Source of the DNA: Nocardioides mangrovicus | GTDB lineage: Bacteria; Actinomycetota; Actinomycetes; Propionibacteriales; Nocardioidaceae | Assembly (NCBI RefSeq): GCF_003674065.1 | Contig: NZ_RDBE01000010.1 | Location: 654,906 to 718,905, forward strand | Direction: 5' to 3' | DNA: 64,000 nucleotides | Part shown: positions 26,017 to 45,356 of the stretch, piece by piece | Position numbering within the stretch: the stretch's first letter is position 1 | Layout: every line of letters begins with the position of its first letter | Translations under genes and position numbers: made by a program | The notes under the pieces: model-generated | Told to the model about the DNA's origin: nothing | Seen by the model: the letters and a program-made list of their open reading frames with translations, nothing else | Databases searched by the model: none

Positions 26017-27330
<1,314 letters not shown>

Positions 27331-29521: not shown

Positions 29522-29536
29522 GCTGCCTCCGACTGA

Positions 29537-29547
29537 TGGATCCATTG
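29537..29547. promoter_or_regulatory. GntR-type operator candidate 1
   Basis: TGGATCCATTG, an 11-bp sequence containing the palindrome TGGATCCA, 16-26 bp upstream of the E1 start codon and adjoining its GGAGG. An identical copy lies 75 bp away on the other side of the divergent region. Confidence 0.5.
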
Positions 29548-29569
29548 GCGGGCCGAGTTACGGCGAAGC

Positions 29570-29598
29570 TTGCCTCGTCGTGCGACCGCGGTCACAAT
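29570..29598 (+). promoter_or_regulatory. Putative promoter of VOC-gntR operon
   Basis: -35 TTGCCT (29570-29575), 17-nt spacer, -10 CACAAT (29593-29598). Expected transcription start about 29605, immediately before operator candidate 2. Confidence 0.4.
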
Positions 29599-29608
29599 CT
29601 AGGCGAGC

Positions 29609-29625
29609 AATTGGATCCATTGCAA
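29609..29625. promoter_or_regulatory. GntR-type operator candidate 2
   Basis: GCAATTGGATCCATTGC: outer arms GCAAT/ATTGC are complementary and the core TGGATCCATTG (29612-29622) is identical to candidate 1. It sits just downstream of the predicted start of the VOC-gntR transcript, so binding should block it. Confidence 0.5.
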
Positions 29626-29637: not shown

Positions 29638-30144
29638 ATGTCAGACGCAGCTATCCCCGGCCTCGCACGGGTCGACCACATCGGGCTGACCGTGCCCGAC
29701 CTCGACCAGGCCCACGACTTCTTCACCGAGGTGCTCGGCGCGCAGTTCATGTACGAGCTCGGCCCCTTCGAGCACGACGACGACTGGATGAGCCAGCACC
29801 TCAACGTCGCCGACGACACGGTGATGCGACGGCTCCGCTTCTACCGGCTGGGCGGGCAGGCGATCTTCGAGGTGTTCGAGTACGAGGCCCGCGAGCAGGC
29901 CGCGGAGCCGCCGCTGAACAGCGACGTCGGCGGGCACCACGTGGCGCTCTACGTCGAGGACCTCGATGCCGCCGTCGAGCGGCTCCACGAGCTCGGCCTG
30001 CGGGTGCTGGGCGAGCCGACCGCCAGCAGCGGTCCCAGCCAGGGGCAGCGGTGGGTCTACTTCCTGGCACCGTGGGGCCTGCAGCTCGAGCTGGTCTCCT
30101 ATCCTGGCGGCAAGGCTTTCGACCGGGAGCAGGAGCGCCGTTGA
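29638..30144 (+). CDS. VOC (glyoxalase/dioxygenase) family protein
   Basis: Protein of 168 residues made of two beta-alpha-beta-beta-beta units. HIGLTVPDLDQAHDFF and GHHVALYVEDLDAAVERL mark the two halves, and the metal-ligand Glu of the last strand is in LQLELVSY. Such proteins isomerise or cleave small oxygenated metabolites; the particular reaction is unknown. ATG follows CGGAGG by 7 nt. The stop overlaps the TTG start of the GntR gene (TTGA), so regulator and enzyme are made together. Divergent from the E1/E2 operon, it probably acts on the 2-oxoacid precursor or product. Confidence 0.88.
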   Translation: MSDAAIPGLARVDHIGLTVPDLDQAHDFFTEVLGAQFMYELGPFEHDDDWMSQHLNVADDTVMRRLRFYRLGGQAIFEVFEYEAREQAAEPPLNSDVGGHHVALYVEDLDAAVERLHELGLRVLGEPTASSGPSQGQRWVYFLAPWGLQLELVSYPGGKAFDREQERR

Positions 30145-30812
30145 TCCAGGCCGCGGACGAGCCGGCGCCGGCGGGCGTCGCCAGCCGGCGCATCGCCGAC
30201 CACGTCCGCGCGCAGATCCTGGCCGGCGAGCTGGAGCCGGGCACCCGGATCCGGCAGGACGACCTGGCGCGGGAGCTGGCCGCCAGCCGGCTCCCGGTGC
30301 GCGAGGCGCTGCGGATCCTGGAGACCGCCGGCCTGGTGACGCTGCACGCCAACCGGGGCGCCTGGGTCACCCGCCTGGACCAGCGCGACTGCGAGCAGAG
30401 CTACCAGATCCGCGAGCGCATCGAGCCGCTGCTGCTGCGCGAGAGCGCTCCCCTGCTCACCGCCGAGGACCTCGCCGAGCTCGACCGGCTGCAGGTCGCC
30501 ATCGAGTCCACCGACGACGTGGAGCAGTTCCTGGTGCTCGACCGGCAGCTCCACTGGACCACCTACCGGCACGCCGAGGCGCGCGAGCTGGTCGCGATCA
30601 TCGAGCGGTTGTGGGACACCACGCAGCACTACCGCCGCGCGTTCAGCCGGATCGCCCACGAGCGGCGCCGGTGGATCATCGACGCCGAGCACCGGCTGCT
30701 CATCCAGGCCCTGCGCGACGGCGACGTCGAGGAAGCCGAGCGGGTGCTGGAGATGCACATCCGCCGGACGCGGGTGGAGCTGCAGGCTCACCCCGAGGTG
30801 TTCAGCTCCTGA
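30141..30812 (+). CDS. GntR-family regulator (FadR/FCD subfamily)
   Basis: Regulator of 223 residues. The winged helix (about 15-75) contains IRQDDLARELAASRLPVREALRILE and the FCD ligand domain follows with Asp/His ligands in DRQLHWTTYRH and DAEHRLLIQAL. The TTG start overlaps the VOC stop and has AGGAG upstream. Its likely targets are the two TGGATCCATTG sites in the VOC-E1 gap, giving control of both divergent operons, with an organic-acid effector as usual for FCD proteins (inference). The 3' end overlaps the convergent EboE gene by 25 nt. Confidence 0.9.
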   Translation: MIQAADEPAPAGVASRRIADHVRAQILAGELEPGTRIRQDDLARELAASRLPVREALRILETAGLVTLHANRGAWVTRLDQRDCEQSYQIRERIEPLLLRESAPLLTAEDLAELDRLQVAIESTDDVEQFLVLDRQLHWTTYRHAEARELVAIIERLWDTTQHYRRAFSRIAHERRRWIIDAEHRLLIQALRDGDVEEAERVLEMHIRRTRVELQAHPEVFSS

Positions 30813-32002
30813 CGCACGAACTCCAGCTCGCGCGTCACGTAGTCGGTGATCGAGCCGGTCTTGAGGTGCTCGGGGAGCACGTCCCAGGTGTAGGTCTCGA
30901 TCTCCAGGTGGTCCGAGAGCGGCAGCTCCCGGTGCAGGCGAAGCGCGTCCTGCACCGCGGGCCGGGTGGTGCGGAAGGGCCCGATCTCCTCGAGGAACAC
31001 CGGCACGTGGAAGTGCGTGCGAAGCTCGGTGGGGCGCAGGTCGCCCGCGTAGGCGTCCAGCGCCTCGCCCAGGGTCAAGAACGAGCGCCGGCCGCCGTCT
31101 TGCTGCAGCGTCGTCTGGCTGAGGTAGATGGTGTCGGTGAACTCGCGCAGTGCGGGCACGACGTCGGCGTCGAGGTCCTCGACCCACAGGGCCGCCGCCG
31201 CCTGGAGCTTGAAGACGGGCACGCCCGCCTCGGTGAGGGCGATCAGCGAGGCCCGGACGTCCTCGAAGCCGACGGCCTGGTGGCCCATGTCGAACACGAC
31301 GCCGAGATAGCGGCGCAGCGCTCCCTCGGCCTCCGAGAGCGGCAGCCGGGCCACCCGCGCCAGCTCGGCCACCGAGCGCGGGTCGCGCAGTCGCTCGAAG
31401 TACGCGATCGTCTGCGGCGTCGTCTCCAGGTAGCAGGCCGGCTCGGGCTCGATGGCGAGCTTCACCCGGACGCCGGTGCGCGCCTCGAGGTCGGCCAGGT
31501 GCGCGACCACGCGCAGCACCTGGCTGGTGAAACGCGAGACGTACGCCTCGTCGCCGACCTTGGGGGCGAACGCCATCGGGGCGGTCTGGATGCTGGGACT
31601 CAGCCCGGGCCGGCCGGCGCGCAACGTGAGGTCGGCGAGCACGTCGGCGACCTGGCAGGTGTAGGTCGCCCGCTCCTCGGTGGTCCAGTCGGGTTCGTAG
31701 ACGCGCTCCATCACCGACGCGCCCTTGAACGGCCCGTGCGGGAACGCGTTGACCGTGTAGACGAAGAGGTCCTCGCGGTCGAGCAGATCGCCCAGCGACG
31801 CCCGCTCGTCGGGGTCGGCGGCGAGCACGCCCGCGGCCTTTCCGGAGAGCCGCAGCGAGACCCCGAACGGCTCGTCCGGGCTCACCCGCGCCTTCACCTC
31901 GGGGACGTAGGTCGCCAGCGAGTCGCGCATCTGCGACCACGTGTCGCCGGCGTGCACCAGCGTCGAGTACGTCAGCAGTCCGAGGCCGTCCGGCAGCTGC
32001 AT
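30788..32002 (-). CDS. EboE-like TIM-barrel protein (orphan)
   Basis: Protein of 404 residues resembling EboE, a xylose-isomerase-like TIM-barrel protein of the ebo cluster, which is linked to export of metabolites to the periplasm in cyanobacteria and other bacteria. Features: STLVHAGDTWSQMRDSLATY, FGVSLRLSG, VYTVNAFPHGPFKG, the metal-type Glu in LAIEPEPACYLE, and a C-terminal HFHVPVF. ATG 32002 is chosen because GGAGGTGG lies 4-5 nt upstream. No other ebo genes are present; it lies 37 bp downstream of an XRE-cupin regulator in the same orientation. A metabolic isomerase or hydrolase role is equally possible. Confidence 0.72.
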   Translation of the reverse strand: MQLPDGLGLLTYSTLVHAGDTWSQMRDSLATYVPEVKARVSPDEPFGVSLRLSGKAAGVLAADPDERASLGDLLDREDLFVYTVNAFPHGPFKGASVMERVYEPDWTTEERATYTCQVADVLADLTLRAGRPGLSPSIQTAPMAFAPKVGDEAYVSRFTSQVLRVVAHLADLEARTGVRVKLAIEPEPACYLETTPQTIAYFERLRDPRSVAELARVARLPLSEAEGALRRYLGVVFDMGHQAVGFEDVRASLIALTEAGVPVFKLQAAAALWVEDLDADVVPALREFTDTIYLSQTTLQQDGGRRSFLTLGEALDAYAGDLRPTELRTHFHVPVFLEEIGPFRTTRPAVQDALRLHRELPLSDHLEIETYTWDVLPEHLKTGSITDYVTRELEFVRQELNTSG

Positions 32003-32017: not shown

Positions 32018-32034
32018 GTTCAGTGGTGGTGAAC
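32018..32034. promoter_or_regulatory. Inverted repeat GTTCA-N7-TGAAC before eboE-like gene
   Basis: A 17-bp inverted repeat in the 37-bp gap between the XRE-cupin regulator and the EboE-like gene, just upstream of the GGAGGTGG. Possible operator for the adjacent regulator. Confidence 0.35.
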
Positions 32035-32039
32035 TTATC

Positions 32040-32693
32040 TCAGTGACGGTGTCCGTGCACGAACCAGATGCCGGTGAACACCTCGTCGCTGCGGTTGTGC
32101 AGCACGTGGGGGATGGTGGAGTCGAACCCCAGCGACTCGCCCTCGCGCAGCACGAAGACCTCCTCGCCCACGGTGACCTCGACCTCGCCGGAGAGCACGT
32201 AGCCGTACTCGTAGGCCTCATGGGCCTGCAGGTCGCCCTCGACGCTGGAGGAGGCGCCCGGCGCATAAGTGATGCGCATGAAGTTGACGCCGCGCTCGGG
32301 AGTCGCGGCCAGCCGCTCCCACTCCACGCCCTCGGCCATCGCCAGGCGTGAACGGTGCGAGGGGTGCACCACCGAGATGCGGGTGGCGTACTCCGAAGGC
32401 CGCCAGGCGTGAGCCGGGTCGACGAAGCCGTTGCTCTCGGTGCTGTGCCCGACGCGGGCCAGGCTCAGCGAGGTGGCCGCGGGCGCGGGCTCGTCGCTGC
32501 TCTCGAAGAGCTCGTCGACCGAGACCCCGAGCACGCGGGAGAAGGTGTAGAGGGTGGCCACCGAGGGCTGGGACTTACCGTTCTCGATCTGGGAGATCAG
32601 CGACGGCGACACCTGGGCCGAGCGGGCCAGCTCGCGCATCGTCAACCCGGCGTTCAGCCGCGCCTGGCGCAGCCGCTCCCCCAGGAAGTCCAT
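32040..32693 (-). CDS. XRE-family regulator with C-terminal cupin
   Basis: Regulator of 217 residues. N-terminal Cro/C1 helix-turn-helix: LRQARLNAGLTMRELARSAQ and SPSLISQIENGKSQPS (about residues 8-45). C-terminal cupin domain (about 145-215) with EAYEYGYVLSGEVEVTVGEE and FDSTIPHVLHNRSDE. Proteins of this design sense small metabolites through the cupin. ATG 32693 has GGAGGGG 8 nt upstream and is preferred over GTG 32717. It is divergent from the PRISE-type reductase and upstream of the EboE-like gene, so it may govern both. Confidence 0.9.
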   Translation of the reverse strand: MDFLGERLRQARLNAGLTMRELARSAQVSPSLISQIENGKSQPSVATLYTFSRVLGVSVDELFESSDEPAPAATSLSLARVGHSTESNGFVDPAHAWRPSEYATRISVVHPSHRSRLAMAEGVEWERLAATPERGVNFMRITYAPGASSSVEGDLQAHEAYEYGYVLSGEVEVTVGEEVFVLREGESLGFDSTIPHVLHNRSDEVFTGIWFVHGHRH

Positions 32694-32822
32694 CGCGCCA
32701 TCCCCTCCGCCGGCCACCCCGGCGTCCTCACTTTAGCAGCACTGCACAGGATCGACCGATCCGCCTTGATGTTTACCGCCATGCAACAGTACGGTCGCGG
32801 TTCCCCACCACAGGAGGATCGC

Positions 32823-33914
32823 ATGACGTCCACGCCCATCCCTGCGACGACCCGCGGCCGCGCCCTGGTCGTCGGCGCCACCGGCATCACCGGCCAGGCC
32901 GTCGCCCGGCGGCTGGTGGCCGACGGCTGGGACACGACCGGGCTCTCCCGCAGCGGTCGCGAGCTGGTCGACCAGATGGCCACCGTCTCGGCCGACCTCA
33001 CCTCGGCCGAGGAGCTGCGGACGGCCCTGACCGACGTGCACCCGGAGATCGTGGTGATCACCGCATGGACCCGGCGCGACACCGAGGCCGAGAACATCGA
33101 GGTCAACGGCGCCCTGGTGCGCGACCTGCTCGCCGCGCTGGAGCCGGCCGGGTCGGTGCGCCACGTGGCGCTGATGACCGGGCTCAAGCACTACCTCGGC
33201 CCCTTCGAGGCCTACGCCACCGGCGTCATGCCCGACACCCCCTTCCACGAGGAGGAGCCGCGGCTGGAGACGCCGAACTTCTACTACGCCCAGGAGGACG
33301 AGCTCTTCGCCGCCGCGGCGCGGCAGGGGTTCACCTGGAGCGTGCACCGCGCCCACACCGTCTTCGGCTTCGCCACCGGCAACGCGATGAACATGGTGGC
33401 CACGCTGTGCGCGTACGCCACGTTGTGCCGCGAGCTGGACCGCCCCTTCGTCTTTCCCGGATCGCAGACGCAGTGGGACTCGCTGACCGACGTCACCGAC
33501 GCCGAGCTGCTGGCCGAGCAGATGGTGTGGGCGGCCACCGACCCGGCCGGCGCCGACCAGGCCTTCAACATCGCCAACGGCGACGTCTTCCGGTGGCGCT
33601 GGCTGTGGCCGCAGATCGCCGCGCACTTCGACCTGCCCTGGGAGGGCTTCGAGGGCGAGCCCCGCACCCTGGAGCACGCCATGGCCGGCGTCGAGGACAC
33701 CTGGACCGCCATCGCCCAGCGCGAGGGCCTGGCCGAGTCGCGGCTGGACCGCGTGGCGTCGTGGTGGCACACCGACGGCGACCTCGGCCGCGACATCGAG
33801 GTGTGCACCGACATGAACAAGAGCCGGGCGGCCGGCTTCACCGCCACCCGCGACACCCGGGCCGCCTTCTTCGACTACGCCGAGCGCTACCGGGCGGCCC
33901 GGATCATCCCGTAG
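32823..33914 (+). CDS. PRISE-type SDR (progesterone 5-beta-reductase/iridoid-synthase-like)
   Basis: Atypical short-chain reductase of 363 residues. The N-terminal cofactor motif is VVGATGITGQA; the PRISE hallmarks are TGLKHYLGPF (catalytic-type Lys at 122) and PNFYYAQED (Tyr at 154/155), replacing the classical YxxxK. This family reduces enones with NADPH (family knowledge). ATG follows AGGAGG by 6 nt. The divergent neighbour is the XRE-cupin regulator; downstream is a tandem repeat, then the convergent dehydrogenase operon. The natural substrate is unknown. Confidence 0.85.
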   Translation: MTSTPIPATTRGRALVVGATGITGQAVARRLVADGWDTTGLSRSGRELVDQMATVSADLTSAEELRTALTDVHPEIVVITAWTRRDTEAENIEVNGALVRDLLAALEPAGSVRHVALMTGLKHYLGPFEAYATGVMPDTPFHEEEPRLETPNFYYAQEDELFAAAARQGFTWSVHRAHTVFGFATGNAMNMVATLCAYATLCRELDRPFVFPGSQTQWDSLTDVTDAELLAEQMVWAATDPAGADQAFNIANGDVFRWRWLWPQIAAHFDLPWEGFEGEPRTLEHAMAGVEDTWTAIAQREGLAESRLDRVASWWHTDGDLGRDIEVCTDMNKSRAAGFTATRDTRAAFFDYAERYRAARIIP

Positions 33915-33930
33915 CGGCACAGCGCACGCC

Positions 33931-34020
33931 GCTCGAGGAGGTCGCCTGCCCGGCGCTGGTCGAGGAGGTCGCCCGCCCGGCGCGCTGGTCGAGGAGGTCG
34001 CCCGCGACCGTCTCGAAACC
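33931..34020. repeat. Tandem repeat between convergent genes
   Basis: Three imperfect units of 27-29 nt sharing TCGAGGAGGTCGCC, beginning at about 33932, 33956 and 33985; the last unit continues into CGCGACCGTCTCGAAACC. The GAGGAGGTCGC and GCGACCGTCTC parts are partly complementary and could fold. It fills most of the 129-bp gap between two convergent operons. Repeats of this type are common between genes in Nocardioides-like genomes (recalled, not searched). Confidence 0.7.
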
Positions 34021-34043
34021 CGCCCCGCCCCACGGCCCCCGGC

Positions 34044-35021
34044 TCAGTCCCCCGGGCCGGCGAACTCGATGTGCGCCTTGATCGTGTCCCGGGCGTGGTG
34101 GGCCGCCTCGATCGCACCGGTGGCGTCCTCGATGCCGAAGCGGCCGGTGACCAGCGGGGTGAGGTCGATGCCGCTGCCGGCCAGGAACCGCAGCGTCTGC
34201 GGCCACACGCCGGGGGAACCGATCGTGCCGGTGAGGCGGAGCTCCTTGGACTGGATCAGTCCCAGGCGGGCCGGCGCATCGCCGCCGACGTCGATGCCGA
34301 TGTAGGCGACCCGGCCGCCGAACCCGGCCAGCTCGAGTGCCGCCGCCATCACCGCCGGCCGGCCACTGGCCTCCAGCACCACGGTGGGCCCGCTCCCCTG
34401 CGTGAGCTCGGCCAGGGCGTCGGCCGCCTCCTCGGGCAGCACCGTGTGGTGGGCGCCGAGCCGCCTCGCCGCCTCGCGCCGGTCCTCGGCCGGCTCGACG
34501 ACGACCACCTGCGCGCCCATCGCCCTGGCCGCGGCGACGACCGCCAGCCCGATCGGTCCGGCGCCGAGCACCGCGACCGTGTCGCTGGCGTCGAGACCGC
34601 CGGCTCGCACGATCGCGTAGTAGGCGACGCTGAACGGCTCGACGAGCGCGCCCATGGTGAACGACAGCTCGTCGGGCAGTCGGTGCAGCCACTCGGGCCG
34701 GGCCACGAACCGCTCGGCGGCCGCGCCGCTGATGGAGAACCCGAAGTGGTCCTCACCGATGACGCACTCGCCCACCACCCGGTCGCCCGGGTTGAGGCTC
34801 GAGACGTCATCGCCCACCGCCACCACCTCCCCGGACCACTCGTGGCCGGGGATGAGCGGGTAGGAGAAGGGGATGATGTAGCGCCCCTCCAGCAGATCGA
34901 TGTCGGAGTGGCAGACGCCCACCGACCGCGCCGCGACGAGCACCTGGTCGGCACCGATCTCGGGCGTCGGGAGGTCGACGACCTCGGCCACGCCGCGTGC
35001 GGTGTACTGCAGGGCACGCAT
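34044..35021 (-). CDS. Zinc-type alcohol dehydrogenase (MDR), third of operon
   Basis: Medium-chain dehydrogenase of 325 residues. Catalytic zinc ligands in VGVCHSDIDLLEG (Cys) and PGHEWSGEV (His-Glu); Rossmann motif VLGAGPIGLAVV. The region that carries four structural-zinc cysteines in the two sister enzymes is replaced by GECVIGEDHFGFSI with only one Cys, so the structural zinc site is lost. ATG 35021 shares a base with the upstream dehydrogenase stop (TGATG). It is the last gene of the seven-gene operon starting at 43503. Oxidation of a polyol or secondary alcohol is likely; the substrate is unknown. Confidence 0.87.
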   Translation of the reverse strand: MRALQYTARGVAEVVDLPTPEIGADQVLVAARSVGVCHSDIDLLEGRYIIPFSYPLIPGHEWSGEVVAVGDDVSSLNPGDRVVGECVIGEDHFGFSISGAAAERFVARPEWLHRLPDELSFTMGALVEPFSVAYYAIVRAGGLDASDTVAVLGAGPIGLAVVAAARAMGAQVVVVEPAEDRREAARRLGAHHTVLPEEAADALAELTQGSGPTVVLEASGRPAVMAAALELAGFGGRVAYIGIDVGGDAPARLGLIQSKELRLTGTIGSPGVWPQTLRFLAGSGIDLTPLVTGRFGIEDATGAIEAAHHARDTIKAHIEFAGPGD

Positions 35022-36079
35022 CAGCGCGCCTGCACCAGGACCTTGACCTGGTCGCCGGTCGGCGACAACAGGGTCTCGAAGCCGGCGGTGACGACGTCGG
35101 CCATGTCGATCTGGGCGGTGACCACCTTCTCGACCGGGTAGCGGCCACTGGCGACGAGCGCGATGATCCGCGGCCAGTCGAAGACCGGGTAGCACCAGGT
35201 GCCGGCCAGGGTCACGTCGTGCTCCGCGAGCGCCATCGGGTCGATGCTGGCGGGCTTGGTGTGCAGTCCGGTCTGGGAGACCCGGCCGGCCGAGCGCACC
35301 GAGGCCAGCGCGGTCTGCAGCGCCTGCTCGTTGCCGGAGCACTCGATGGCGGCGTCGAAGCCGATGCCGTCGCGCCGGTCCTTCGCCCAGGCGGCGACGT
35401 CGACCTCGCGCGGGTCGAGCACCTCACCCACCCCGAGCGAGCGCGCGAGGTCGGCCCGCGTGGGGTTCACCTCGGAGACCACCACCTCCGCGCCCGCGGC
35501 CGAGGCGTAGAGGGCCGCCAGCGCACCGATCGGTCCGGCGCCGGTGATCAGCACGCTGTCGCCGGGCCGCACGCCCGCGACGTCGACGCCGTACGCCGCC
35601 ACCGCAGCCGGCTCGATGAGCGCACCCTGCAGGTCGCTGACCTCCCCGGGCAGCACGCTGACGTGGCTGGCGGGCACGATCGCCCGCTCGGCGATGCCGC
35701 CCCAGGCGTAGCTGAGCCCGACGCAGGCCATCGAGACGCACAGGTGGTTCAGGCCGCGGCGGCAGTAATAGCAGGAGCCGCAGAACAGCAGCGGCATGAT
35801 CGAGACCCGGTCGCCGGCGGCGACGTGGTCGACGCCGGCCCCGACCTCGAGCACCTCGGCGGAGAACTCGTGGCCGAGCACCTGCGGCAGCTGCGAGCCG
35901 TTGAGCCGGTGCGGCTCGCTGGGGATGACGATCGGGCCCATCGCGTACTCGTGCAGGTCGGTGCCGCAGATGCCGCACCACAGCGGTCGCAGCAGCACCT
36001 CCCCGGCCCCGGGCGCGTCGGGAGCATCGACCTCGTCGATGCGGACGTCGTGCTCGGCGTGGAAGACAGCGGCTCTCAT
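35021..36079 (-). CDS. Zinc-type dehydrogenase, butanediol-dehydrogenase-like
   Basis: Medium-chain dehydrogenase of 352 residues. Catalytic zinc: GICGTDLHEY and LGHEFSAEV; structural zinc: the four cysteines of CGSCYYCRRGLNHLC; Rossmann motif ITGAGPIGALAAL. The segment IPSEPHRLNGSQLPQVLGHE is typical of 2,3-butanediol and related dehydrogenases. It lies between two other dehydrogenases in the operon, 36 nt after the stop of the first and overlapping the third. With three MDR enzymes in a row, successive oxidations or alternative stereoisomers are plausible. Confidence 0.9.
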   Translation of the reverse strand: MRAAVFHAEHDVRIDEVDAPDAPGAGEVLLRPLWCGICGTDLHEYAMGPIVIPSEPHRLNGSQLPQVLGHEFSAEVLEVGAGVDHVAAGDRVSIMPLLFCGSCYYCRRGLNHLCVSMACVGLSYAWGGIAERAIVPASHVSVLPGEVSDLQGALIEPAAVAAYGVDVAGVRPGDSVLITGAGPIGALAALYASAAGAEVVVSEVNPTRADLARSLGVGEVLDPREVDVAAWAKDRRDGIGFDAAIECSGNEQALQTALASVRSAGRVSQTGLHTKPASIDPMALAEHDVTLAGTWCYPVFDWPRIIALVASGRYPVEKVVTAQIDMADVVTAGFETLLSPTGDQVKVLVQAR

Positions 36080-36115
36080 CAGGTGTCCTTCGTCTCTGGT
36101 GTCGGTGAACGGGGG

Positions 36116-37168
36116 TCAGGCGACGCGCGTGGGGTCGATCAGTACCTTGCCGTGCAGCTCGCCGGCGGCGAGCCGCTCGAGCTGGGCGGGCACGGCCTCG
36201 AGCGGGTGCACGGAGTCGAGCACTTCGTGGGCCAGGTCGCTCTCGTGCAGCAGGGTGAGCGCGGCGGCCAGGTCGGCGTCGCACACGTGCGCCAGGGTGG
36301 TGACGACGTCGATCTCGCGCATGACGGTGGTGAACACGTCGACCTCCTGGCGCTGCTTGGGCAGCCCGACCTGCAGCACGGTGCCACCCGGACGCACCAG
36401 CTCCAGGGCGGCCTGCAACCGGCCCGGGGCGCCGCTGGCCTCGATGACGACGTCGACGGGAGCGCTCGCCGCCGCCTCGCGCAGCTGCTCGTCGGCCTCG
36501 GGACCGGCCGGCACCACCCGGGCGGCACCGAGCCGCGTGGCGCGGTCGAGGCGGGGGCCCGCGAAGTCGACCACCGTCACCTCGGCCCGCGCCAGCGAGC
36601 TCAGGCCGGCGAGCACGAACGAGCCGATCGCGCCCGCGCCCGTCATCACCACCCGGTCGCCGTCGCGGACTCCGGAGCGGCGGGCGGCATGCAGTCCGAC
36701 GGCGAGCGGCTGCGCGAGCCCGGCCGCGTCGAGCTCCAGACCCTCGGGCACCGGCCTCAGCGTCTGCTCGGGCACCGCGACGAGCTCGGCCATCCCACCG
36801 GGGGCGTTGAGGCCGAGCGTCCAGTAGCGCTCGCACAGGTTGGTGCGGCCCTCGGCGCAGCGTCGGCACCGCCCGCACCACACGCCGGCCCCGGAGGCCA
36901 CGACGTCGCCCGCGGCGAGGGCGCTGCCGCCGGGGTCGACCACCTCGCCCACGAACTCGTGGCCGAGCACCATCGGCCCGACGTGCCCGGTGACCGGGTG
37001 CGGCGTGGCGACCGGGAACGTCCGCGGCCCGACCGACCACTCGGTGGCGTCGGTGCCGCACATGCCGCTGCGCAGCACGCGCAGCAGCACCTCGCCCTCG
37101 CGCGGGCGCGGGTCGGGGACCTCCTCGAGCCGGACGTCGCCGGCCCCGTGGAAGACACTGGCTCTCAT
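36116..37168 (-). CDS. Zinc-type dehydrogenase, threonine/sorbitol-DH-like
   Basis: Medium-chain dehydrogenase of 350 residues. Catalytic zinc: SGMCGTDATEWSVG and LGHEFVGEV; structural zinc: CGRCRRCAEGRTNLC; Rossmann motif MTGAGAIGSFVLAG. Sequence arrangement is close to the 352-residue neighbour (both begin MRA-VFH-), pointing to duplication followed by divergence. It lies 16 nt downstream of the M24-fold gene. The Asp of the second Rossmann strand (VVDFAGPRLDR) suggests NAD preference (inference). Confidence 0.9.
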   Translation of the reverse strand: MRASVFHGAGDVRLEEVPDPRPREGEVLLRVLRSGMCGTDATEWSVGPRTFPVATPHPVTGHVGPMVLGHEFVGEVVDPGGSALAAGDVVASGAGVWCGRCRRCAEGRTNLCERYWTLGLNAPGGMAELVAVPEQTLRPVPEGLELDAAGLAQPLAVGLHAARRSGVRDGDRVVMTGAGAIGSFVLAGLSSLARAEVTVVDFAGPRLDRATRLGAARVVPAGPEADEQLREAAASAPVDVVIEASGAPGRLQAALELVRPGGTVLQVGLPKQRQEVDVFTTVMREIDVVTTLAHVCDADLAAALTLLHESDLAHEVLDSVHPLEAVPAQLERLAAGELHGKVLIDPTRVA

Positions 37169-37184
37169 CGGATACTGGCCCGCA

Positions 37185-38606
37185 TCAGGCCCGCTCGCCG
37201 CGCCCCGCCGCGGTGTTCAGGTGCGACTGCGCGCTGCGGTGCAGCAGCGGCGAGCCGCTGACGGAGTAGTAGCGCTGACCCGCGACGAGCAGCTCCTCGG
37301 CCGGGAACTTGGTGACCACCTCGCAGCCGTCGGCGGTCACCACGAGCTCCTCCTCGATCCGGGCGGCACCCACGCCGTCGGCCGAGGGCCAGTAGGTCTC
37401 CAGCGCGAAGAACATGCCCTCCTTGAGCTCCTCGGGGTGATCGAGCGAGACCAGCCGGGAGAAGATCGGCTTCTCCCAGATCGACAGGCCCACGCCGTGG
37501 CCGTACTGCAGCGCGAAGGCCGCCTCCTCGTCGGGGAAGCCGAACTCCTGCGCGGTCGGCCACTGGCTGACGATGTCGGCGGTGGTGGCCCCGGGCCGCA
37601 CCAGCGCGATCGCGCGGTCCATGTACTCCCGCGCGCGGGTGTAGGCGTCGTGCTGCGCGCTGCTGGCCGAGCCGACCGCGAAGGTGCGGTAGTAGCAGGT
37701 GCGGTAGCCGTTGAAGCTGTGCAGGATGTCGAAGAACGCCGGGTCGCCGGGCCGGATGAGGCGGTCGGAGTACACGTGCGGGTGCGGTGAGCAGCGCTCG
37801 CCGGAGATCGCGTTGACGCCCTCGACGTACTCCGAGCCGAGGTCGTAGAGCACCTTCGAGACCAGCCCGACCGTCTCGTTCTCCCGCACGCCCGGGCGCA
37901 GAAACTCGTAGAGGTGGTCGTAGGCCGCGTCGACCATCGAGGCGGCCTGGGTGAGCAGCGAGATCTCGTCACGCGTCTTGATCGAGCGCGCGCGCATGAA
38001 CACCTGCTGGCCGTCGACGACGTCGATGCCCGCCTTCTGCAGGGCGAAGAGCACCGGTAGCTCGACGACGTCCACACCGAGCGGCTCCCCCAGCAGTCCG
38101 AACTTCTCCAGCTCGCGGCGGATCTTGGCCGCGACGTCCTCGGCGATGCCGGCGTCGGGGTTGAACGCGCCGCGCAGCGTGGAGATGCCCGCCCGCGACC
38201 CGTTCTCGGCCCGGGGGCGCACCGCGCCGTGGTGCGGCGCGTGCGGGTCGGCGTCCATCTCGGTGGTGGTCGTCGCCAGCCACGGGTTGTACAGCTGGTG
38301 GTGGCGTGCCGCGGAGCCGAAGTCCCACACCACCGGGTCGGAGTTCCGGGTCACCAGCGCGAACCGGATCATCTTGTCCATCGCCCAGGTGCCGATGTGG
38401 GTGGCGCTCATGTAGCGGATGTTGGAGAAGTCGAACGCCAGCAGAGCACCGAGGTCGGAGGCCTCGAGCTCGGCGCGCAGCCGCGCCAGCCGCTCACTGC
38501 GCAGCCGGTCGTAGGAGATCCGCTGCTCCCAGTCGACGGCGTTCGTGCCGGTGGTGGCGGTGCTGTAGGTGGGGGTGTCGCCGAGGTTGTCGATCGTGCT
38601 GGTCAT
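37185..38606 (-). CDS. M24 (creatinase/aminopeptidase P) family protein with altered metal site
   Basis: Protein of 473 residues with the creatinase-like N-terminal domain (about 35-220) and a pita-bread C-terminal domain. Expected dinuclear metal ligands: first Asp in FFDILHSFNGY, second Asp position occupied by Cys (GYRTCYYRTF instead of GYxSDxTRTF), His in QYGHGVGLSIW, Glu in FALETYW, and Glu in IEEELVV. Four of five ligands remain. The N-terminal FDFSNIRYMS recalls both aminopeptidase P and the DMSP lyase DddP. It sits in a transport and dehydrogenase operon, so a C-N or C-S bond in the imported compound may be its target (inference). Confidence 0.82.
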   Translation of the reverse strand: MTSTIDNLGDTPTYSTATTGTNAVDWEQRISYDRLRSERLARLRAELEASDLGALLAFDFSNIRYMSATHIGTWAMDKMIRFALVTRNSDPVVWDFGSAARHHQLYNPWLATTTTEMDADPHAPHHGAVRPRAENGSRAGISTLRGAFNPDAGIAEDVAAKIRRELEKFGLLGEPLGVDVVELPVLFALQKAGIDVVDGQQVFMRARSIKTRDEISLLTQAASMVDAAYDHLYEFLRPGVRENETVGLVSKVLYDLGSEYVEGVNAISGERCSPHPHVYSDRLIRPGDPAFFDILHSFNGYRTCYYRTFAVGSASSAQHDAYTRAREYMDRAIALVRPGATTADIVSQWPTAQEFGFPDEEAAFALQYGHGVGLSIWEKPIFSRLVSLDHPEELKEGMFFALETYWPSADGVGAARIEEELVVTADGCEVVTKFPAEELLVAGQRYYSVSGSPLLHRSAQSHLNTAAGRGERA

Positions 38607-38669
38607 GGGGGAGGCCTTTCTGTGGCCCGCGGTTCGCGGCCGTGGGTGGAACGGGTCCGGAGGTGGGGG

Positions 38670-41204
<2,535 letters not shown>

Positions 41205-41222
41205 CGTGTGGTCCTTTCCGGG

Positions 41223-41267
41223 GCTCGGACCGACCGGTCCGCATCAGCGGGACCGGCCGGTCCGAGC
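41223..41267 (-). promoter_or_regulatory. Long hairpin between SBP and ABC fusion genes
   Basis: Arms 41223-41240 and 41250-41267 pair at 17 of 18 positions around a 9-nt loop. Located in the 84-nt gap downstream of the binding-protein gene; such hairpins commonly protect the upstream mRNA or attenuate read-through so that the binding protein exceeds the membrane subunits. Confidence 0.6.
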
Positions 41268-41288
41268 AGAGGGGTGGGCCCGGAGGCC

Positions 41289-42386
41289 CTACTTGCCGAG
41301 CTTCGCCTGCTGGTCGCCGGGCATCTCGGCCGACAGGTAGACGTCGCCGGGCAGGTCCTTGCGGCACTGCACGCCGTGCGGCTGCTGGCTCACCGAGTCC
41401 TCGAAGACCGGGCCCTTGAAGGAGTCCGCGGTCGGGATCTTGCCGCCGGTCGCCTTGGCCACCGCGTAATCCACCGCGAGCCGGACGTTGTCGTTGCCGG
41501 TGGTGACGGTCATCATCTTGAACGGGTCCGTGGCCTGCTGGTCCTGCCAGAAGCAGCTCAGCGAGTTGCCGTCGCTGGTCGCCAGCGCGGGGATCGAGCG
41601 GCCGCTCTTGGCGAACAGCGGCAGCGAGCTGACCAGCGTCGGGCCGAAGTCGGAGACGATGACGTCGATCTTCGGGTACTTGGCGATGTCGGCCGTCAGC
41701 AGCTGCTGGGTCTTGGTGGGGTCCCAGTTGGTCGGCTGGAACGGCGTCTGGCCGATGAACTTGTAGGAGTCGGGCAGGTTCTTGCGCAGCGTCGTGTACT
41801 CGGTGGTGCTCTGGCTGTTGCCGGCCGGACCGCCCAGGAACAAGATGTTGCCGCCGTTCGGCACGTTCTGCTTGATCCAGGTGGACCAGTTGACGGCGTC
41901 GTTGGCGAAGTCGTCGCCGATCCACTTGTCGTAGTTGGTGCCGGCCTTACCGCCGGGGAAGACCCGGTAGGGCACCGTCACCACGCCGGCCTTGAACGAG
42001 TCGGTGAGCGCGGGGAGCACCGCCTTGCCGGCGTCGGGGAAGACCACCATCGCGTCGACCCCGGAGGAGACCATGCCCTTGATGTCGGAGATGGCCTTCT
42101 GGGTGTCGCCCTGCCCGTCGGCGTAGCGGAACTTGGTGACACTGGGGCACTTGGACGCCTCGTCCTTGCCCGAGGCGGTCGTCACCAACCGCCAGCTGTT
42201 GCCGCCGTAGCCGTCGAGCAGCCCGAGGGTGATCTTCTTGGTGCCGCACCACGACGGTGCGCCCTTGACGTGGGTGACCGGACCGCTGGCGCCGTTGGAC
42301 TGTCCTCCCGAGGAGCCGCAGGCGGCGAGCGCCATCGACGCCACCAGCGAAGCGCAGGCGGCCGCGACCGTCGTGCGAGATCTCAT
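41289..42386 (-). CDS. ABC substrate-binding lipoprotein, sugar type
   Basis: Extracytoplasmic binding protein of 365 residues. Signal peptide with lipobox LAAC (Cys at residue 23) followed by GSSGGQSNGASG. The mature part is of periplasmic-binding-protein type 1 (ribose/autoinducer-like) fold, with AISDIKGMVSSGVDAMVVFPD in the first lobe and DVIVSDFGPTL in the second. It defines what the operon imports; three Trp-bearing loops (NSWRLV, VNWSTW, TNWDPT) may line the pocket (inference). AAGGAG precedes the ATG by 8 nt. Hairpins lie on both sides of the gene, consistent with its need for higher expression. Confidence 0.92.
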   Translation of the reverse strand: MRSRTTVAAACASLVASMALAACGSSGGQSNGASGPVTHVKGAPSWCGTKKITLGLLDGYGGNSWRLVTTASGKDEASKCPSVTKFRYADGQGDTQKAISDIKGMVSSGVDAMVVFPDAGKAVLPALTDSFKAGVVTVPYRVFPGGKAGTNYDKWIGDDFANDAVNWSTWIKQNVPNGGNILFLGGPAGNSQSTTEYTTLRKNLPDSYKFIGQTPFQPTNWDPTKTQQLLTADIAKYPKIDVIVSDFGPTLVSSLPLFAKSGRSIPALATSDGNSLSCFWQDQQATDPFKMMTVTTGNDNVRLAVDYAVAKATGGKIPTADSFKGPVFEDSVSQQPHGVQCRKDLPGDVYLSAEMPGDQQAKLGK

Positions 42387-42407
42387 CGTTGTTCTCTCCT
42401 TACTCGG

Positions 42408-42427
42408 GCGCGACAGCGGTGTCGCGC
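42408..42427 (-). promoter_or_regulatory. Perfect 8-bp hairpin upstream of SBP gene
   Basis: Arms GCGCGACA and TGTCGCGC with loop GCGG, in the gap between the permease gene and the binding-protein gene. May act as an mRNA processing or stability element, or a weak terminator. Confidence 0.5.
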
Positions 42428-42471
42428 ACTACCGGCCCCGAAGCCGCGGACTGGGTGGTGGGCACCGACGC

Positions 42472-43503
42472 TCATCCCGTGCCGGCCGCCGGCGCCCCGG
42501 CAGCTGCCGGGGGTCGCGGTCGGCGGGCCAGGATCGAGCGCCAGTCGATGGTGTAGAGCGAGACGCCGACGGCCAGGGCGGCCGCCTGCACCAGCGGCGA
42601 GATCGCCGCGGAGAAGCCGAGGACGGTGACCAGCTGCACCAGCTGCTGCAAGAAGACCGCCGCGATCACGGTGGGAAGCGGGAACCCGCGGCCACCGAGC
42701 AGCGAGGTGCCGCCCAGCACCACGACGGCGATCGAGGGGAGCAGGAAGGTGTCGCCGGCGAACGCGGTCGGCTGGGAGGTGATGCCGGCGACCAGGATCC
42801 CGGCCAGGCAGTAGAGCAGCTGCGCCCAGACGTAGGTCGCGGTCCGGTGGGTGCGCACCCGCAGCCCGGCCGCCCGCGCCGCGCGCTGGTTGGCACCGAT
42901 CGCCTCGAACCGGCGTCCGGCCACGGTGCGCTTGACCACCAGCGTCACCAGTCCCAGGGTGGCGATCGCGAAGAACACCGAGTTCGGCACCCCCAGCGTG
43001 GAGCCGCCGCCGATGTCGCCCATCAGCCGGGTGGTGATGCGCGGCCGGCCGCCGGAGATCTGCAGGTTGACGCCGTACAGCACGGCGTTGGCGCCCAGCG
43101 TGGCGATGATCGGGTTGAGCCCCATCGTGCCGATGAGCAGGCCGTTGAGCGCCCCGGCGGCCACGGCGAGCACCAGCGCGATCAGCACCGCGACGCCGAG
43201 CTTGGAGCTGTCGCCGTCGGGCACGTGGGTGATCACCACCAGCGCCAGCGAGATGGCGCCGGGCACCGAGAGGTCGATGCCGCCCTGCTGCACGACCAGC
43301 ATCTGGCCGAGCCCGGCGATGGCCAGCACGGCAGCGATCGGCAGCATCCCCGACAGCGAGGTACCCGAGACGCTGGCCCGGTCGAGCAGGGCGCTGAGCA
43401 CGAAGAGGATCACCGTGGCGGTGCCGATGGTCACCAGGCCCTTGGAGGCCCAGGTGCGACCAGCGGCCAGCTGGGGCCGATCCTGCTCGAGCGTCGTCGC
43501 CAT
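42472..43503 (-). CDS. ABC sugar-type permease (RbsC-like)
   Basis: Inner-membrane permease of 343 residues with about 9-10 hydrophobic segments. Family marks: QGGIDLSVPGAIS in the first half, GLNPIIATLGANAVLYG in the middle, and GGTSLLGGRGFPLPT near the end. It is the first gene of the operon, reading permease, binding protein, ATPase-permease fusion, M24 protein, three dehydrogenases. ATG has GGAGGAGG about 9-10 nt upstream. A promoter with an embedded inverted repeat lies about 60 bp upstream. Confidence 0.92.
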   Translation of the reverse strand: MATTLEQDRPQLAAGRTWASKGLVTIGTATVILFVLSALLDRASVSGTSLSGMLPIAAVLAIAGLGQMLVVQQGGIDLSVPGAISLALVVITHVPDGDSSKLGVAVLIALVLAVAAGALNGLLIGTMGLNPIIATLGANAVLYGVNLQISGGRPRITTRLMGDIGGGSTLGVPNSVFFAIATLGLVTLVVKRTVAGRRFEAIGANQRAARAAGLRVRTHRTATYVWAQLLYCLAGILVAGITSQPTAFAGDTFLLPSIAVVVLGGTSLLGGRGFPLPTVIAAVFLQQLVQLVTVLGFSAAISPLVQAAALAVGVSLYTIDWRSILARRPRPPAAAGAPAAGTG

Positions 43504-43561
43504 CGCCCGTCGCCCTCCTCCGCGGCTGTTGTGACGCCACTCACGTCACGTGTTGAGCCGG

Positions 43562-43590
43562 ACTGTACTAAGTTGCATGGGAATGCACAA
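43562..43590 (-). promoter_or_regulatory. Promoter with embedded operator for the ABC/dehydrogenase operon
   Basis: On the minus strand: -35 TTGTGC (43590-43585), 17-nt spacer, -10 TACAGT (43567-43562), start expected near 43555. The inverted repeat TGCAT-GGGA-ATGCA (43574-43587) lies between and over the -35, in the position of a repressor site. No regulator gene is present in the operon. Confidence 0.5.
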
Positions 43591-43722
43591 CCGGCGCCGG
43601 CTAGTTTTCTGCCAGCAGAGGCCCGCGGGGCGCACCTCTTGCGGGATTTCGGATCGATGTTGTTCAGTACTGCTCTACCGACGAGACAGTCACACTCGTG
43701 ATCAGCCGGCGAGGAGGCCCGC

Positions 43723-44583
43723 ATGGATCTGGGACTGGAAGGAAAGGTCGCCCTGGTCACCGGGGCCGGTCGCGGCCAGGGTCGGGCGATGGCGGTCCGG
43801 CTCGCCGAGGCCGGCGCCGACGTCGCCTGCCTCGACATCGACGGCACCGTCGAGACCGCGCCGTACCCGCTGGCCGGCGTCGAGGACCTGACCGAGACCG
43901 CGCAACTGGTGGAGAAGACCGGGCGTCGGGCGCTCGCGCTGGCTGCCGATGTGCGCTCGCAGGCCGAGCTCGACGAGGCGGTGGCGCAAACGCTGACCGA
44001 CTTCGGCGGGCTCGACGTGGTCGTGGCCAACGCCGGTATCTGGGCGCTCGGCGCCTTCTGGGAGCTCACCGAGACGCAGTGGACCCAGATGCAGGACGTC
44101 GTCCTGGGCGGGGTGTGGCGCACCGTCAAGGCCGCGACCCCGCACCTGATCTCGCAGCAGTCGGGGTCGGTGGTGCTGACCTCGTCGGTCAACGGCCTGG
44201 AGGGCGGGCCCGGGTTCGCCCACTACACCGCGGCCAAGCACGGCGTCATCGGCTTCATGCGCGCGGCGGCCCAGGAGCTGGGTCCGCACAACGTGCGGGT
44301 CAACGCGATCTGTCCCGGCTTCATGGACACGCAGATGAACCAGTGGCCCGGCGCCTACGACATGATGGCCGGCCACCCCGGTGGCACGGCGCAGGACCGG
44401 GCTGACGGCGCCTACCACTGGTCGCTGCTGCAGGGCCGCGGCGCGCTGCCCGTCGAGGCGACCGCCGACGCGGTGCTGTGGCTGGCCGGCGACCTCTCGC
44501 GTCACGTCACCGGCGTCGCGCTCCCCGTCGACGGCGGCCACCTGGTGCTGCCCGGGCTCAACACCGCGCCGGTGCGACCGTGA
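43723..44583 (+). CDS. Mycofactocin-coupled SDR family oxidoreductase
   Basis: Short-chain dehydrogenase of 286 residues. The nucleotide motif reads GAGRGQGRAMAVRLAEAG (GRGQGR in place of the usual GxxxGIG), and the inserted PYPLAGVEDLTETAQLVE segment is the mark of the mycofactocin-associated SDR subfamily, which holds its NAD tightly and passes electrons to the peptide-derived cofactor mycofactocin. VVANAGI, TSSVNG and the HYTAAKHG catalytic motif are intact. ATG follows GAGGAGG by 5 nt. It is divergent from the ABC operon and coupled to a second SDR by GTGA overlap. Confidence 0.9.
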   Translation: MDLGLEGKVALVTGAGRGQGRAMAVRLAEAGADVACLDIDGTVETAPYPLAGVEDLTETAQLVEKTGRRALALAADVRSQAELDEAVAQTLTDFGGLDVVVANAGIWALGAFWELTETQWTQMQDVVLGGVWRTVKAATPHLISQQSGSVVLTSSVNGLEGGPGFAHYTAAKHGVIGFMRAAAQELGPHNVRVNAICPGFMDTQMNQWPGAYDMMAGHPGGTAQDRADGAYHWSLLQGRGALPVEATADAVLWLAGDLSRHVTGVALPVDGGHLVLPGLNTAPVRP

Positions 44584-45356
44584 GCGCCACCGCCACGTTC
44601 GACTTCTCGGGCGCGGTGGTCCTGGTGACCGGCGGCGGGAGCGGCATCGGCCGGTCCGTGACCCGCAGCTTCCTCGACGCCGGCGCCGACGTCGCGGTGC
44701 TCGGCCGTCGGTTGGAACGCTGCGAGGAGACGCTGGCCGGCCATCCCGAGGAGCGCACCATGGCCCTGGCCTGCGACGTGGGCCGGCCCGAGGAGGTGGC
44801 ACACGCGGTCCGCGGGGTCGTCGACCGGTTCGGTCGCCTCGACGTCGTCGTCAGCAACGCGGCGCTCTACGTCTCCGGCTCCCTGACCGACCTGGACGAG
44901 GCCACCTGGGCCTCGATGCGCGCCACCAACGTCGACGGCACCTTCCACCTGCTCCGGCACTGCCTGCCCCACCTCGAGGCCAGCAGCGGCAGCGTCGTGG
45001 CGGTCTCCTCGGTCTCCGGCGAGCGCGGCGACTGGGGCCAGGCGGCCTACAACGCCACCAAGGGAGCGGTCAGCCTCTTCGTGCGCAGCCTCGCCCTCGA
45101 CTACGGCGCGCGCGGCGTGCGCATCAACGCCGTCGCGCCGGCCTTCACCCTCACCGACATGACCGCCCGCGTCGACCGCGACCCCGACTCGCTCGCACCC
45201 TTCGTCAACCGCGTCGCCCTCGGCCGCCTCGCCGAGCCCGACGACATCGCCCCCGCGGTGCTCTACCTCGCCAGCGACGCCGCCCGCTACGTCACCGGCG
45301 TCGTCCTCCCGGTCGACGGCGGCACCAGCGCCTCGACCGGCCAGCCTCACCTGTAG
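44580..45356 (+). CDS. SDR family oxidoreductase (classical)
   Basis: Classical short-chain dehydrogenase of 258 residues: TGGGSGIGRS, VVSNAALY (NNAG variant), catalytic Ser in VSSVSGE and Tyr/Lys in YNATKGA. Its sequence GRRLER after strand 2 suggests NADP use (inference). The GTG start overlaps the stop of the mycofactocin-type SDR (GTGA), so the pair is co-translated. Together with the three MDR enzymes across the divergent promoter, five alcohol-type oxidoreductases serve this locus. A strong hairpin follows the stop. Confidence 0.9.
   Translation: MSATATFDFSGAVVLVTGGGSGIGRSVTRSFLDAGADVAVLGRRLERCEETLAGHPEERTMALACDVGRPEEVAHAVRGVVDRFGRLDVVVSNAALYVSGSLTDLDEATWASMRATNVDGTFHLLRHCLPHLEASSGSVVAVSSVSGERGDWGQAAYNATKGAVSLFVRSLALDYGARGVRINAVAPAFTLTDMTARVDRDPDSLAPFVNRVALGRLAEPDDIAPAVLYLASDAARYVTGVVLPVDGGTSASTGQPHL

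What the first reader, a model, noticed from the sequence alone, without database searches (positions are those of the whole stretch)
34044..45356. Candidate undescribed catabolic locus: ABC importer, altered M24 protein, three MDRs, mycofactocin-type SDR
Seven co-directional, closely spaced genes (43503 to 34044) plus two divergent SDR genes combine a sugar-type importer, a hydrolase-fold protein with a changed metal site and five alcohol-type oxidoreductases, one of them of the mycofactocin-dependent subfamily. I know no described pathway with this set. The binding protein, importer and polyol-type dehydrogenases suggest a hydroxylated compound; the M24 protein suggests that it also has a C-N or C-S bond to break.
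Basis: partly seen in the sequence, partly recalled or inferred. Interest (0 to 1): 0.65.

Follow-up and report, generated by a model that had tools for sequence, protein, structure and literature searches.

The report
Conserved catabolic cluster with altered peptidase
A conserved set of bacterial genes, for which I found no description, that appears to import and oxidise a small hydroxylated compound; at its centre is a peptidase-like enzyme whose metal site carries a cysteine and that often lies beside an acyl-CoA-making dehydrogenase complex.

Summary
Seven co-directional genes (gaps 2-85 bp) encode a CUT2 importer, an M24-fold protein and three MDR dehydrogenases; a mycofactocin-class SDR and a butanediol-dehydrogenase-class SDR diverge from them. 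The locus is not strain-specific: the M24 protein is 81-89% identical in the 80 best named loci. Its second metal Asp is Cys304 in 134 of 134 aligned rows, roseobacters and haloarchaea included; the other ligands are kept. Both SDRs are local additions, while a PRISE enone-reductase homologue, an EboE-class TIM barrel, two regulators, a VOC protein and a thiamine/lipoate dehydrogenase (E1ab, E2) belong to the unit (26017-43503). In L194, from another family, importer, MDRs, PRISE, M24, E1a, E1b and E2 form one run. M24 and an E1 recur together in Actinobacteria and roseobacters with E1s of several separate groups, while transporters and upstream enzymes vary: a catabolic hub. Best reading: M24-Cys cleaves or eliminates from keto-polyol intermediates, and an acetoin-dehydrogenase-type complex splits the resulting alpha-hydroxyketone or dione to acyl-CoA. 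Substrate and M24 reaction are inferred, not shown. New variant of a known kind; eight paper searches showed no description.

The parts
42472..43503 (-). A: CUT2-type ABC permease
   Evidence: PF02653 84 bits; AraH/RbsC-like
41289..42386 (-). B: lipoprotein-type substrate-binding protein, ribose/polyol class (lipobox by eye)
   Evidence: PF13407; fold model pLDDT 87.3, listed solved folds are ribose, inositol and other sugar-class binders, VIA Z 25-29
38670..41204 (-). C: ATPase-permease fusion of the importer
   Evidence: PF00005 (two stretches) plus PF02653
37185..38606 (-). D: M24-fold enzyme with Cys304 in place of the second metal Asp (here called M24-Cys)
   Evidence: PF00557 125 bits; C304 in 134 of 134 aligned rows, window included; model pLDDT 83.6, top Foldseek match RlDddP
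36116..37168 (-). E: zinc MDR dehydrogenase, IolM/threonine-dehydrogenase-like
   Evidence: C37 and H70 kept in at least 90%, four structural Cys in 42 of 42 rows
35021..36079 (-). F: zinc MDR dehydrogenase
   Evidence: structural Cys C103, C106, C114 in 42 of 42 rows, C100 in 36 of 42
34044..35018 (-). G: MDR dehydrogenase without the structural-zinc Cys4 set
32823..33914 (+). PRISE-family (progesterone 5-beta-reductase / iridoid synthase) homologue, a likely enone reductase
   Evidence: phmmer to a solved steroid 5-beta-reductase E 2e-80; label within 10 kb of M24 in 29 of 80 loci
32040..32693 (-). HTH-cupin regulator
   Evidence: HTH_3 plus Cupin_2; label within 10 kb of M24 in 54 of 80 loci
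30788..31996 (-). EboE-class TIM-barrel protein
   Evidence: NF035939 372 bits against cut-off 250; label near M24 in 6 of 80 loci
30141..30812 (+). GntR/FCD-type regulator
   Evidence: translation; its group holds 35 loci; a member of the earlier GntR group scores with PhnR/NanR-type models
29638..30144 (+). VOC protein, methylmalonyl-CoA-epimerase/glyoxalase-like
   Evidence: Glyoxalase_4; weak matches to methylmalonyl-CoA epimerases
29535..29621 (.). two TGGATCCA palindromes between VOC and E1ab, probable GntR operators
   Evidence: found in 22 of 43 such intergenic stretches, 28 sites against 0.17 expected from the flanks
27347..29545 (-). fused E1 alpha/beta of a thiamine-dependent 2-oxoacid/acyloin dehydrogenase
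   Evidence: an E1 of any type within 10 kb of M24 in 34 of 51 well-flanked loci
26017..27330 (-). E2 lipoyl acyltransferase
   Evidence: TIGR01349 389 bits, below its cut-off of 445
43723..44583 (+). H: mycofactocin-class SDR, local neighbour and not co-conserved
   Evidence: 1 of 196 genomes of the order at E 1e-90
44580..45356 (+). I: meso-2,3-butanediol-dehydrogenase-class SDR, local neighbour
   Evidence: NF052558 291 bits against 270; 27-39% matches only in the named loci

Best explanation
A conserved catabolic cluster for a small hydroxylated, probably cyclic, compound. Shown by sequence: a CUT2 importer with a sugar/polyol-class binding protein; three MDR dehydrogenases; a PRISE enone-reductase homologue; an EboE-class TIM barrel; an M24-fold enzyme with a Cys in its metal site; a thiamine/lipoate dehydrogenase (E1, E2); two regulators. 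Inferred: the MDRs turn alcohols into ketones; M24-Cys, whose top Foldseek match is the DMSP lyase DddP, breaks a bond beta to that carbonyl by lyase- or hydrolase-type chemistry; the PRISE enzyme and TIM barrel reduce or isomerise the product; the resulting alpha-hydroxyketone, 1,2-dione or 2-oxoacid is split by an acetoin-dehydrogenase-type complex into acyl-CoA and an aldehyde or CO2; a succinate-semialdehyde-dehydrogenase-type enzyme, present in many sister loci, oxidises the aldehyde. Because transporters and upstream enzymes vary while M24-Cys and often an E1 stay, this pair is probably a shared hub fed by different substrates.
For: M24-Cys is 81-89% identical in the 80 best named loci; where the A-C and E-G proteins match at 50% or more they lie at about 55-87%. 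The GYR[TS]CYYRTF site is kept down to 34-35% identity in haloarchaea. E1 labels lie within 10 kb of M24 in 34 of 51 named loci with at least 8 kb on both sides, and in 9 of 11 such regions from the phylum-wide sample, all 9 within 600 bp. The window genome has two further E1 places in 4.1 Mb, so about 1% would be expected by chance (my estimate). In L194 one strand carries permease, SBP, ABC fusion, F, VOC, PRISE, G, E, Gfo, M24, E1a, E1b and E2. All five roseobacter plasmids opened carry SDR-M24-E1a-E1b-lipoyl-SSADH-E2 with a CUT2 importer. In the E1b tree the M24-linked rows need at least three changes of label (gains or losses) on well-supported branches, and all but the Haloferax row lie outside the PDH/BCKDH group. 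Some SDRs near M24 are of butanediol/acetoin class: I over its cut-off, one fragment by best model, one by annotation. PRISE E 2e-80. Foldseek top match DddP. SBP fold of sugar class.
Against: 17 of 51 well-flanked named loci, 13 of 20 same-order regions and 2 of 11 phylum regions show no E1 nearby. The Haloferax E1 falls with PDH/BCKDH rows. Halorussus L150 has no E1 near. VIA Z values for prolidases, DddP, DoeA and creatinase mostly lie at 30-34, so closeness to DddP is weak evidence of lyase chemistry, and DddP's Asp297 and Asp377 have no counterpart. The three rows I counted as acetoin-type do not group together, and only two of them bear an acetoin annotation in or beside them. A PDH-annotated E1b is only a little less similar (46%) to the roseobacter E1b than the acetoin ones (48-50%). 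EboE occurs in only 6 of 80 loci. No substrate is known.
Confidence: 0.45

Rival explanations
1. Amide route, for example pantothenate: M24-Cys hydrolyses an amide of a hydroxy acid; dehydrogenases and an SSADH-type enzyme take the hydroxy acid to a branched 2-oxoacid; E1/E2 is a branched-chain 2-oxoacid dehydrogenase.
For: M24 relatives DoeA and creatinase cut C-N bonds (matches; chemistry from recall); ApbA/PanE-class label near M24 in 27 of 80 loci, one scoring 146.8 against a subfamily cut-off of 141; SSADH-type and bHAD genes recur; amidase, RidA and aminotransferase in some loci.
Against: Apart from Haloferax, M24-associated E1s do not join the PDH/BCKDH rows; three MDRs, a PRISE reductase and a sugar-class importer are not needed; my one search for a pantothenase gene listed no relevant paper.
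Confidence: 0.12
2. M24-Cys is an ordinary Xaa-Pro-type peptidase that lies by habit beside catabolic genes.
For: Sequence and fold match prolidases about as well as DddP; most of the annotated records opened name it an Xaa-Pro peptidase.
Against: Second metal Asp is Cys in 134 of 134 rows; the His of prolidases at position 377 is Trp in 100, His in 31 and Tyr in 3; no peptide transporter in the operon; frequent company of E1 and dehydrogenases.
Confidence: 0.06
3. One reading: the mycofactocin SDR and its neighbour act on the imported compound together with the operon.
For: H and I diverge from A across about 220 bp; mycofactocin maturase present; I is a diol-type SDR.
Against: H homologue in 1 of 196 genomes of the order at E 1e-90; mftSDR label near M24 in 1 of 80 loci; same-genus L192 has the rest without H or I labels in the 2.5 kb upstream that was held.
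Confidence: 0.12
4. M24-Cys is a C-C or C-N hydrolase on a beta-dicarbonyl or enaminone, comparable in role to 2,6-dihydroxypseudooxynicotine hydrolase, rather than a lyase.
For: Ten of 20 same-order regions pair M24 with a homologue of that hydrolase; RidA, amidase, flavin monooxygenase or amidohydrolase genes in other loci.
Against: That hydrolase is a separate gene in those loci, so M24 would do a different step; I found none of these genes among those examined in the window cluster.
Confidence: 0.2

Closest known systems
DddP, DMSP lyase (M24 fold)
   Same: Top Foldseek match, best NCBIfam model (106 bits), similar length; non-peptidase M24
   Different: 106 bits against a curated cut-off of 600; ligand Asp307 is Cys304; Asp297 and Asp377 have no counterpart, Tyr366 region gapped in the alignment
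DoeA/EutD ectoine hydrolase and creatinase
   Same: M24-fold enzymes that are not peptidases (matches)
   Different: 60 bits against 613 for DoeA; no ectoine or creatine genes seen in the locus
AcoABC acetoin dehydrogenase complex
   Same: Thiamine E1 plus lipoyl E2; roseobacter E1b is 48-50% identical to the two E1b rows with an acetoin annotation in or beside them, against 37-46% for the PDH- and BCKDH-annotated rows opened
   Different: Fused E1ab in the window; the window E2 scores 62 bits with the acetoin E2 model against 307; paired with M24-Cys
Thermotoga inositol route (IolM scyllo-inosose 3-dehydrogenase)
   Same: IolM is the first or second best model for MDRs E, F and G (165, 195, 181 bits)
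   Different: All far below the cut-off of 450; the rest of that route was not searched for
PRISE enone reductases (progesterone 5-beta-reductase, iridoid synthase)
   Same: Window gene 32823-33914 aligns over residues 12-363 of 363, E 2e-80
   Different: Bacterial, inside a catabolic cluster; substrate unknown
CUT2 sugar importers (Rbs/Ara/Xyl)
   Same: Permease, ATPase and binding protein families
   Different: ATPase fused to the second permease; below the cut-off of every listed CUT2 equivalog

Membership tests
DddP DMSP lyase | NCBIfam NF043017 curated score (600 bits) | tested here: not met
   106.4 bits
DddP DMSP lyase | Six metal ligands Asp295, Asp297, Asp307, His371, Glu406, Glu421 (PMC4108388, passages read) | tested here: not met
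   D293, H370, E403, E418 kept; Asp307 is C304, counted back from the shared Arg; no Asp two places after D293, which is L, I, M or V in 47 of 47
M24 Xaa-Pro peptidase | Two Asp, one His, two Glu metal site | tested here: not met
   Second Asp is Cys in 134 of 134 rows
M24 pita-bread fold | Pfam M24 domain and fold | tested here: met
   PF00557 124.6 bits; VIA Z up to 34.0, 346 residues at 2.9 A
Ectoine hydrolase DoeA | TIGR02993 curated score | tested here: not met
   60.2 against 613
Acetoin dehydrogenase E1 | Clusters with acetoin E1 in a tree | tested here: inconclusive
   Mycetohabitans acetoin E1b joins the fused group plus OWN_L177 at 94/82 (not starred); the tool warns of long branches
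BCKDH E1 | Clusters with BCKDH E1 in a tree | tested here: not met
   Window E1 outside the starred PDH/BCKDH group; two BCKDH rows and one PDH row only
PRISE enone reductase | Full-length homology to solved PRISE enzymes | tested here: met
   residues 12-363, E 2e-80; catalytic Lys/Tyr assigned from recall, K122/Y154 in the sequence
Mycofactocin-coupled SDR (gene H) | TIGR03971 cut-off and an mft gene in the genome | tested here: met
   332.2 against 300; maturase 652.7 against 265
EboE | NF035939 cut-off | tested here: met
   372.2 against 250
Acetoin dehydrogenase E1 | Enzymatic cleavage of acetoin or an analogue to acyl-CoA | not testable with these tools
   needs the purified complex

The most novel reading that the evidence does not exclude
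M24-Cys is a new enzyme activity on the pita-bread fold, with a Cys-ligated metal or a catalytic thiolate, that converts keto-polyol-type intermediates into a substrate for thiamine/lipoate, CoA-dependent cleavage. With its E1/E2 partner it defines an undescribed catabolic hub, associated with different importers and with E1s of separate groups, in Actinobacteria, roseobacters and perhaps haloarchaea.
Probability: 0.4. Interest if true: 0.75.

Novelty: new variant of a known kind. Interest (0 to 1): 0.6.

Why it matters
Relatives of the M24-Cys gene are found at E 1e-60 or better in 36 of 396 sampled genomes of the phylum, the window's own included and 4 of them only at 36-39% identity, and on plasmids. 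Its proteins are mostly named peptidases in the records opened. Finding the substrate would assign a reaction to a whole, probably mis-named, protein family, to the E1/E2 complexes beside it and to an EboE-class protein, and would show which compound these bacteria share. The gene set makes this testable with one binding protein, one enzyme and one deletion.

Tried and rejected
Considered and dropped: DMSP lyase (DddP model and ligands not met); ectoine hydrolysis; ordinary prolidase, kept as a low rival; pantothenate route, kept as a rival; mycofactocin-centred locus. A shared GntR site upstream of the A-G operon was sought and not found: TTGGATCCA with up to one mismatch occurs in the window only at 29536-29620, and with the longer pattern at three mismatches one further site lies at 58119.

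Led nowhere: acetoin-E2 model NF011457 rang in 0 of 117 genomes and in no control, so it says nothing. The EboE-class protein against solved chains gave 0 matches. The two-cupin protein gave only weak quercetinase matches. Eight paper searches were seen as listings with the starts of abstracts; none of the listed papers appeared to describe this cluster. Of the papers only passages of PMC4108388 were read.

Limits: my ORF caller missed most genes in low-GC loci, so counts come from tblastn labels. The GntR reference was in a wrong frame (30142 for 30141) and held stops, so its count of 3 is not reliable. Related loci are not independent, so the operator statistic overstates. Of 34 loci chosen for the E1b tree, 28 gave a row; L030, L126, L132, L134, L139 and L157 did not. 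The 80 named loci are the best of 526 relatives, so weaker ones were not seen. In one search, 4 of 102 homologue hits with stops were left out; one search holds 133 homologue rows without stops plus the window, close relatives included.


Full report
What is there. The window is a 64-kb piece of a 4.1-Mb actinobacterial genome; the nearest named record for the M24 gene is Marmoricola sp. URHB0036. Seven run one way with gaps of 85, 84, 63, 16, 36 and 2 bp: permease, lipoprotein-type binding protein, ATPase-permease fusion, M24 protein, three MDRs. H passes the mycofactocin-coupled SDR cut-off (332 against 300), I the meso-2,3-butanediol dehydrogenase cut-off (291 against 270), and the genome has the mycofactocin radical-SAM maturase.

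The M24 protein. It scores 106 bits with the DddP model (cut-off 600), 78 with PepQ and 60 with ectoine hydrolase. Alignment to solved prolidases and DddP shows D293, H370, E403 and E418 kept and the second Asp replaced by C304; counting back from the conserved Arg, C304 corresponds to Asp307 of DddP. C304 is present in 99 of 99 rows of a first alignment, 47 of 47 of a second, and 134 of 134 of a third that includes three roseobacter rows and three haloarchaeal rows at 34-35% identity (the window is one row in each). The His aligned in prolidases with residue 377 is Trp in 100, His in 31 and Tyr in 3 of the 134. The AlphaFold model has mean pLDDT 83.6. Foldseek ranks DddP first (E 4.5e-24); VIA Z values of 30-34 for most prolidases, DddP, DoeA and creatinase hardly differ. 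So it is an M24-fold protein that fails the tested definitions of prolidase, DddP and DoeA.

Conservation. The genome-contig scan found 526 relatives among 571 candidate stretches and kept the best 80, at 81-89% identity over nearly the full length. A-G lie contiguously in 6 of these 80 and D-G in 20 more. Twenty-three of 293 genomes of the order and 36 of 396 of the phylum have a match at E 1e-60 or better, the window's own included; 4 of the 36 match only at 36-39% identity. H is not part of this: 1 of 196 genomes of the order at E 1e-90, the window's own.

Gene families beside M24 in many loci also lie next to the window operon: a PRISE-family protein (32823-33914; E 2e-80 to a solved steroid 5-beta-reductase), an HTH-cupin regulator, an EboE-class protein (372 against 250), a GntR regulator, a VOC protein, a fused E1ab and an E2. 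The same-genus locus L192 has the same order from permease to E1ab plus an ApbA-class gene. In L194, from another family of the order, one strand carries permease, SBP, ABC fusion, F, a VOC protein, PRISE, G, E, a Gfo-class gene, M24, E1a, E1b and E2, with an EboE-class gene divergent at the start (the VOC gene was read by eye).

M24 and E1 travel together. With tblastn labels, an E1 lies within 10 kb of M24 in 40 of 80 named loci (34 of the 51 with at least 8 kb on both sides), in 7 of 20 same-order regions (3 of them within 600 bp) and in 17 of 20 regions from the phylum-wide sample; 9 of the 11 well-flanked ones of the last set have it, all within 600 bp. The window genome has two other E1 places, so chance would give roughly 1% (my estimate). 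Against: 17 of 51, 13 of 20 and 2 of 11 lack it. Five roseobacter plasmids carry SDR, M24, E1a, E1b, lipoyl protein, SSADH and E2 beside a CUT2 importer. Haloferax mediterranei has M24 beside E1b/E1a and an SSADH a few kb on, while Halorussus L150 has no E1 near. In the E1b tree the 30 M24-associated rows fall into four places (fused actinobacterial, separate actinobacterial, roseobacter, Haloferax) and need at least three changes of label on starred branches; these may be gains or losses. All but Haloferax lie outside the starred PDH/BCKDH group. The pairing with E1s of separate groups argues for a functional link. In the M24 tree the E1 labels are clustered but also change several times.

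What varies. Around M24 one finds the window's CUT2 importer, distant CUT2 importers, other ABC types and MFS proteins, and as enzymes MDRs, SDRs, amidohydrolases with a two-cupin protein, a homologue of 2,6-dihydroxypseudooxynicotine hydrolase (10 of 20 same-order regions), bHAD and SSADH-type genes, RidA and amidase. Hence the hub reading.

Regulation. TGGATCCA palindromes lie in 22 of 43 VOC/E1ab intergenic stretches: 28 sites where the flanks would give 0.17 (loci are related, so this overstates). Upstream of gene A a TTGTG[CT], 16-18 bp, TACAGT promoter-like motif is visible by eye in seven of the eight stretches printed (W, L031, L033-L036, L051; in L030 the printed stretch was inside the gene).

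Mechanism. The binding protein has the ribose/inositol-class fold (VIA Z 25-29). MDR E keeps catalytic and structural zinc ligands, F keeps them with C100 in 36 of 42 rows, and G lacks the structural set; the acidic residue ending the second strand suggests NAD (assignment from recall, sequences). A ketone-forming start, an enone-reductase homologue, a DddP-like fold and an E1 of the acetoin-like side fit a route in which a keto-polyol loses a group beta to the ketone and the product is finally cleaved with CoA. The imported compound, the bond that M24-Cys breaks and the E1 substrate are inferences.

Verdict. Real, conserved and larger than described; not a member of any M24 enzyme family tested; pathway not seen in the eight paper searches named under Tried and rejected. 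Substrate unknown.

Noticed in passing
window 24452-25939 (-): BoxB, benzoyl-CoA 2,3-epoxidase (742 bits against 499), directly beyond E2: an aerobic benzoyl-CoA (box) gene borders the cluster.
   Followed up: no
L140, L139 (Paenarthrobacter plasmids): M24-Cys lies about 2 kb from the sulfonamide-resistance flavin reductase SulR in L140 and beside another flavin reductase in L139; Candidatus Leucobacter sulfamidivorax has two M24-Cys loci, L084 and L086.
   Followed up: partly
L104: Two M24-Cys copies of 81% and 55% identity on opposite strands about 2 kb apart, suggesting two substrates or steps.
   Followed up: no
G000:C1:629826-631793 (L173, L174, L177): A second fused E1ab (708-aa open frame, 38-41% identical) in the same genome, near an ABC/permease pair, an E2 and an SDR, possibly a sister catabolic locus.
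   Followed up: no
L117-L121, L123, L125-L127, L129 (same order): A second conserved module: DHPON-hydrolase homologue, bHAD, M24-Cys and SSADH, with LacI and MFS genes and a protein without a family match.
   Followed up: partly
window 38670-41204: ATPase and permease of the importer are fused into one 844-aa protein; related loci match it over at least half its length.
   Followed up: partly
window 30788-31996: An EboE-class protein in a catabolic-looking context; no match to any solved chain by sequence.
   Followed up: partly
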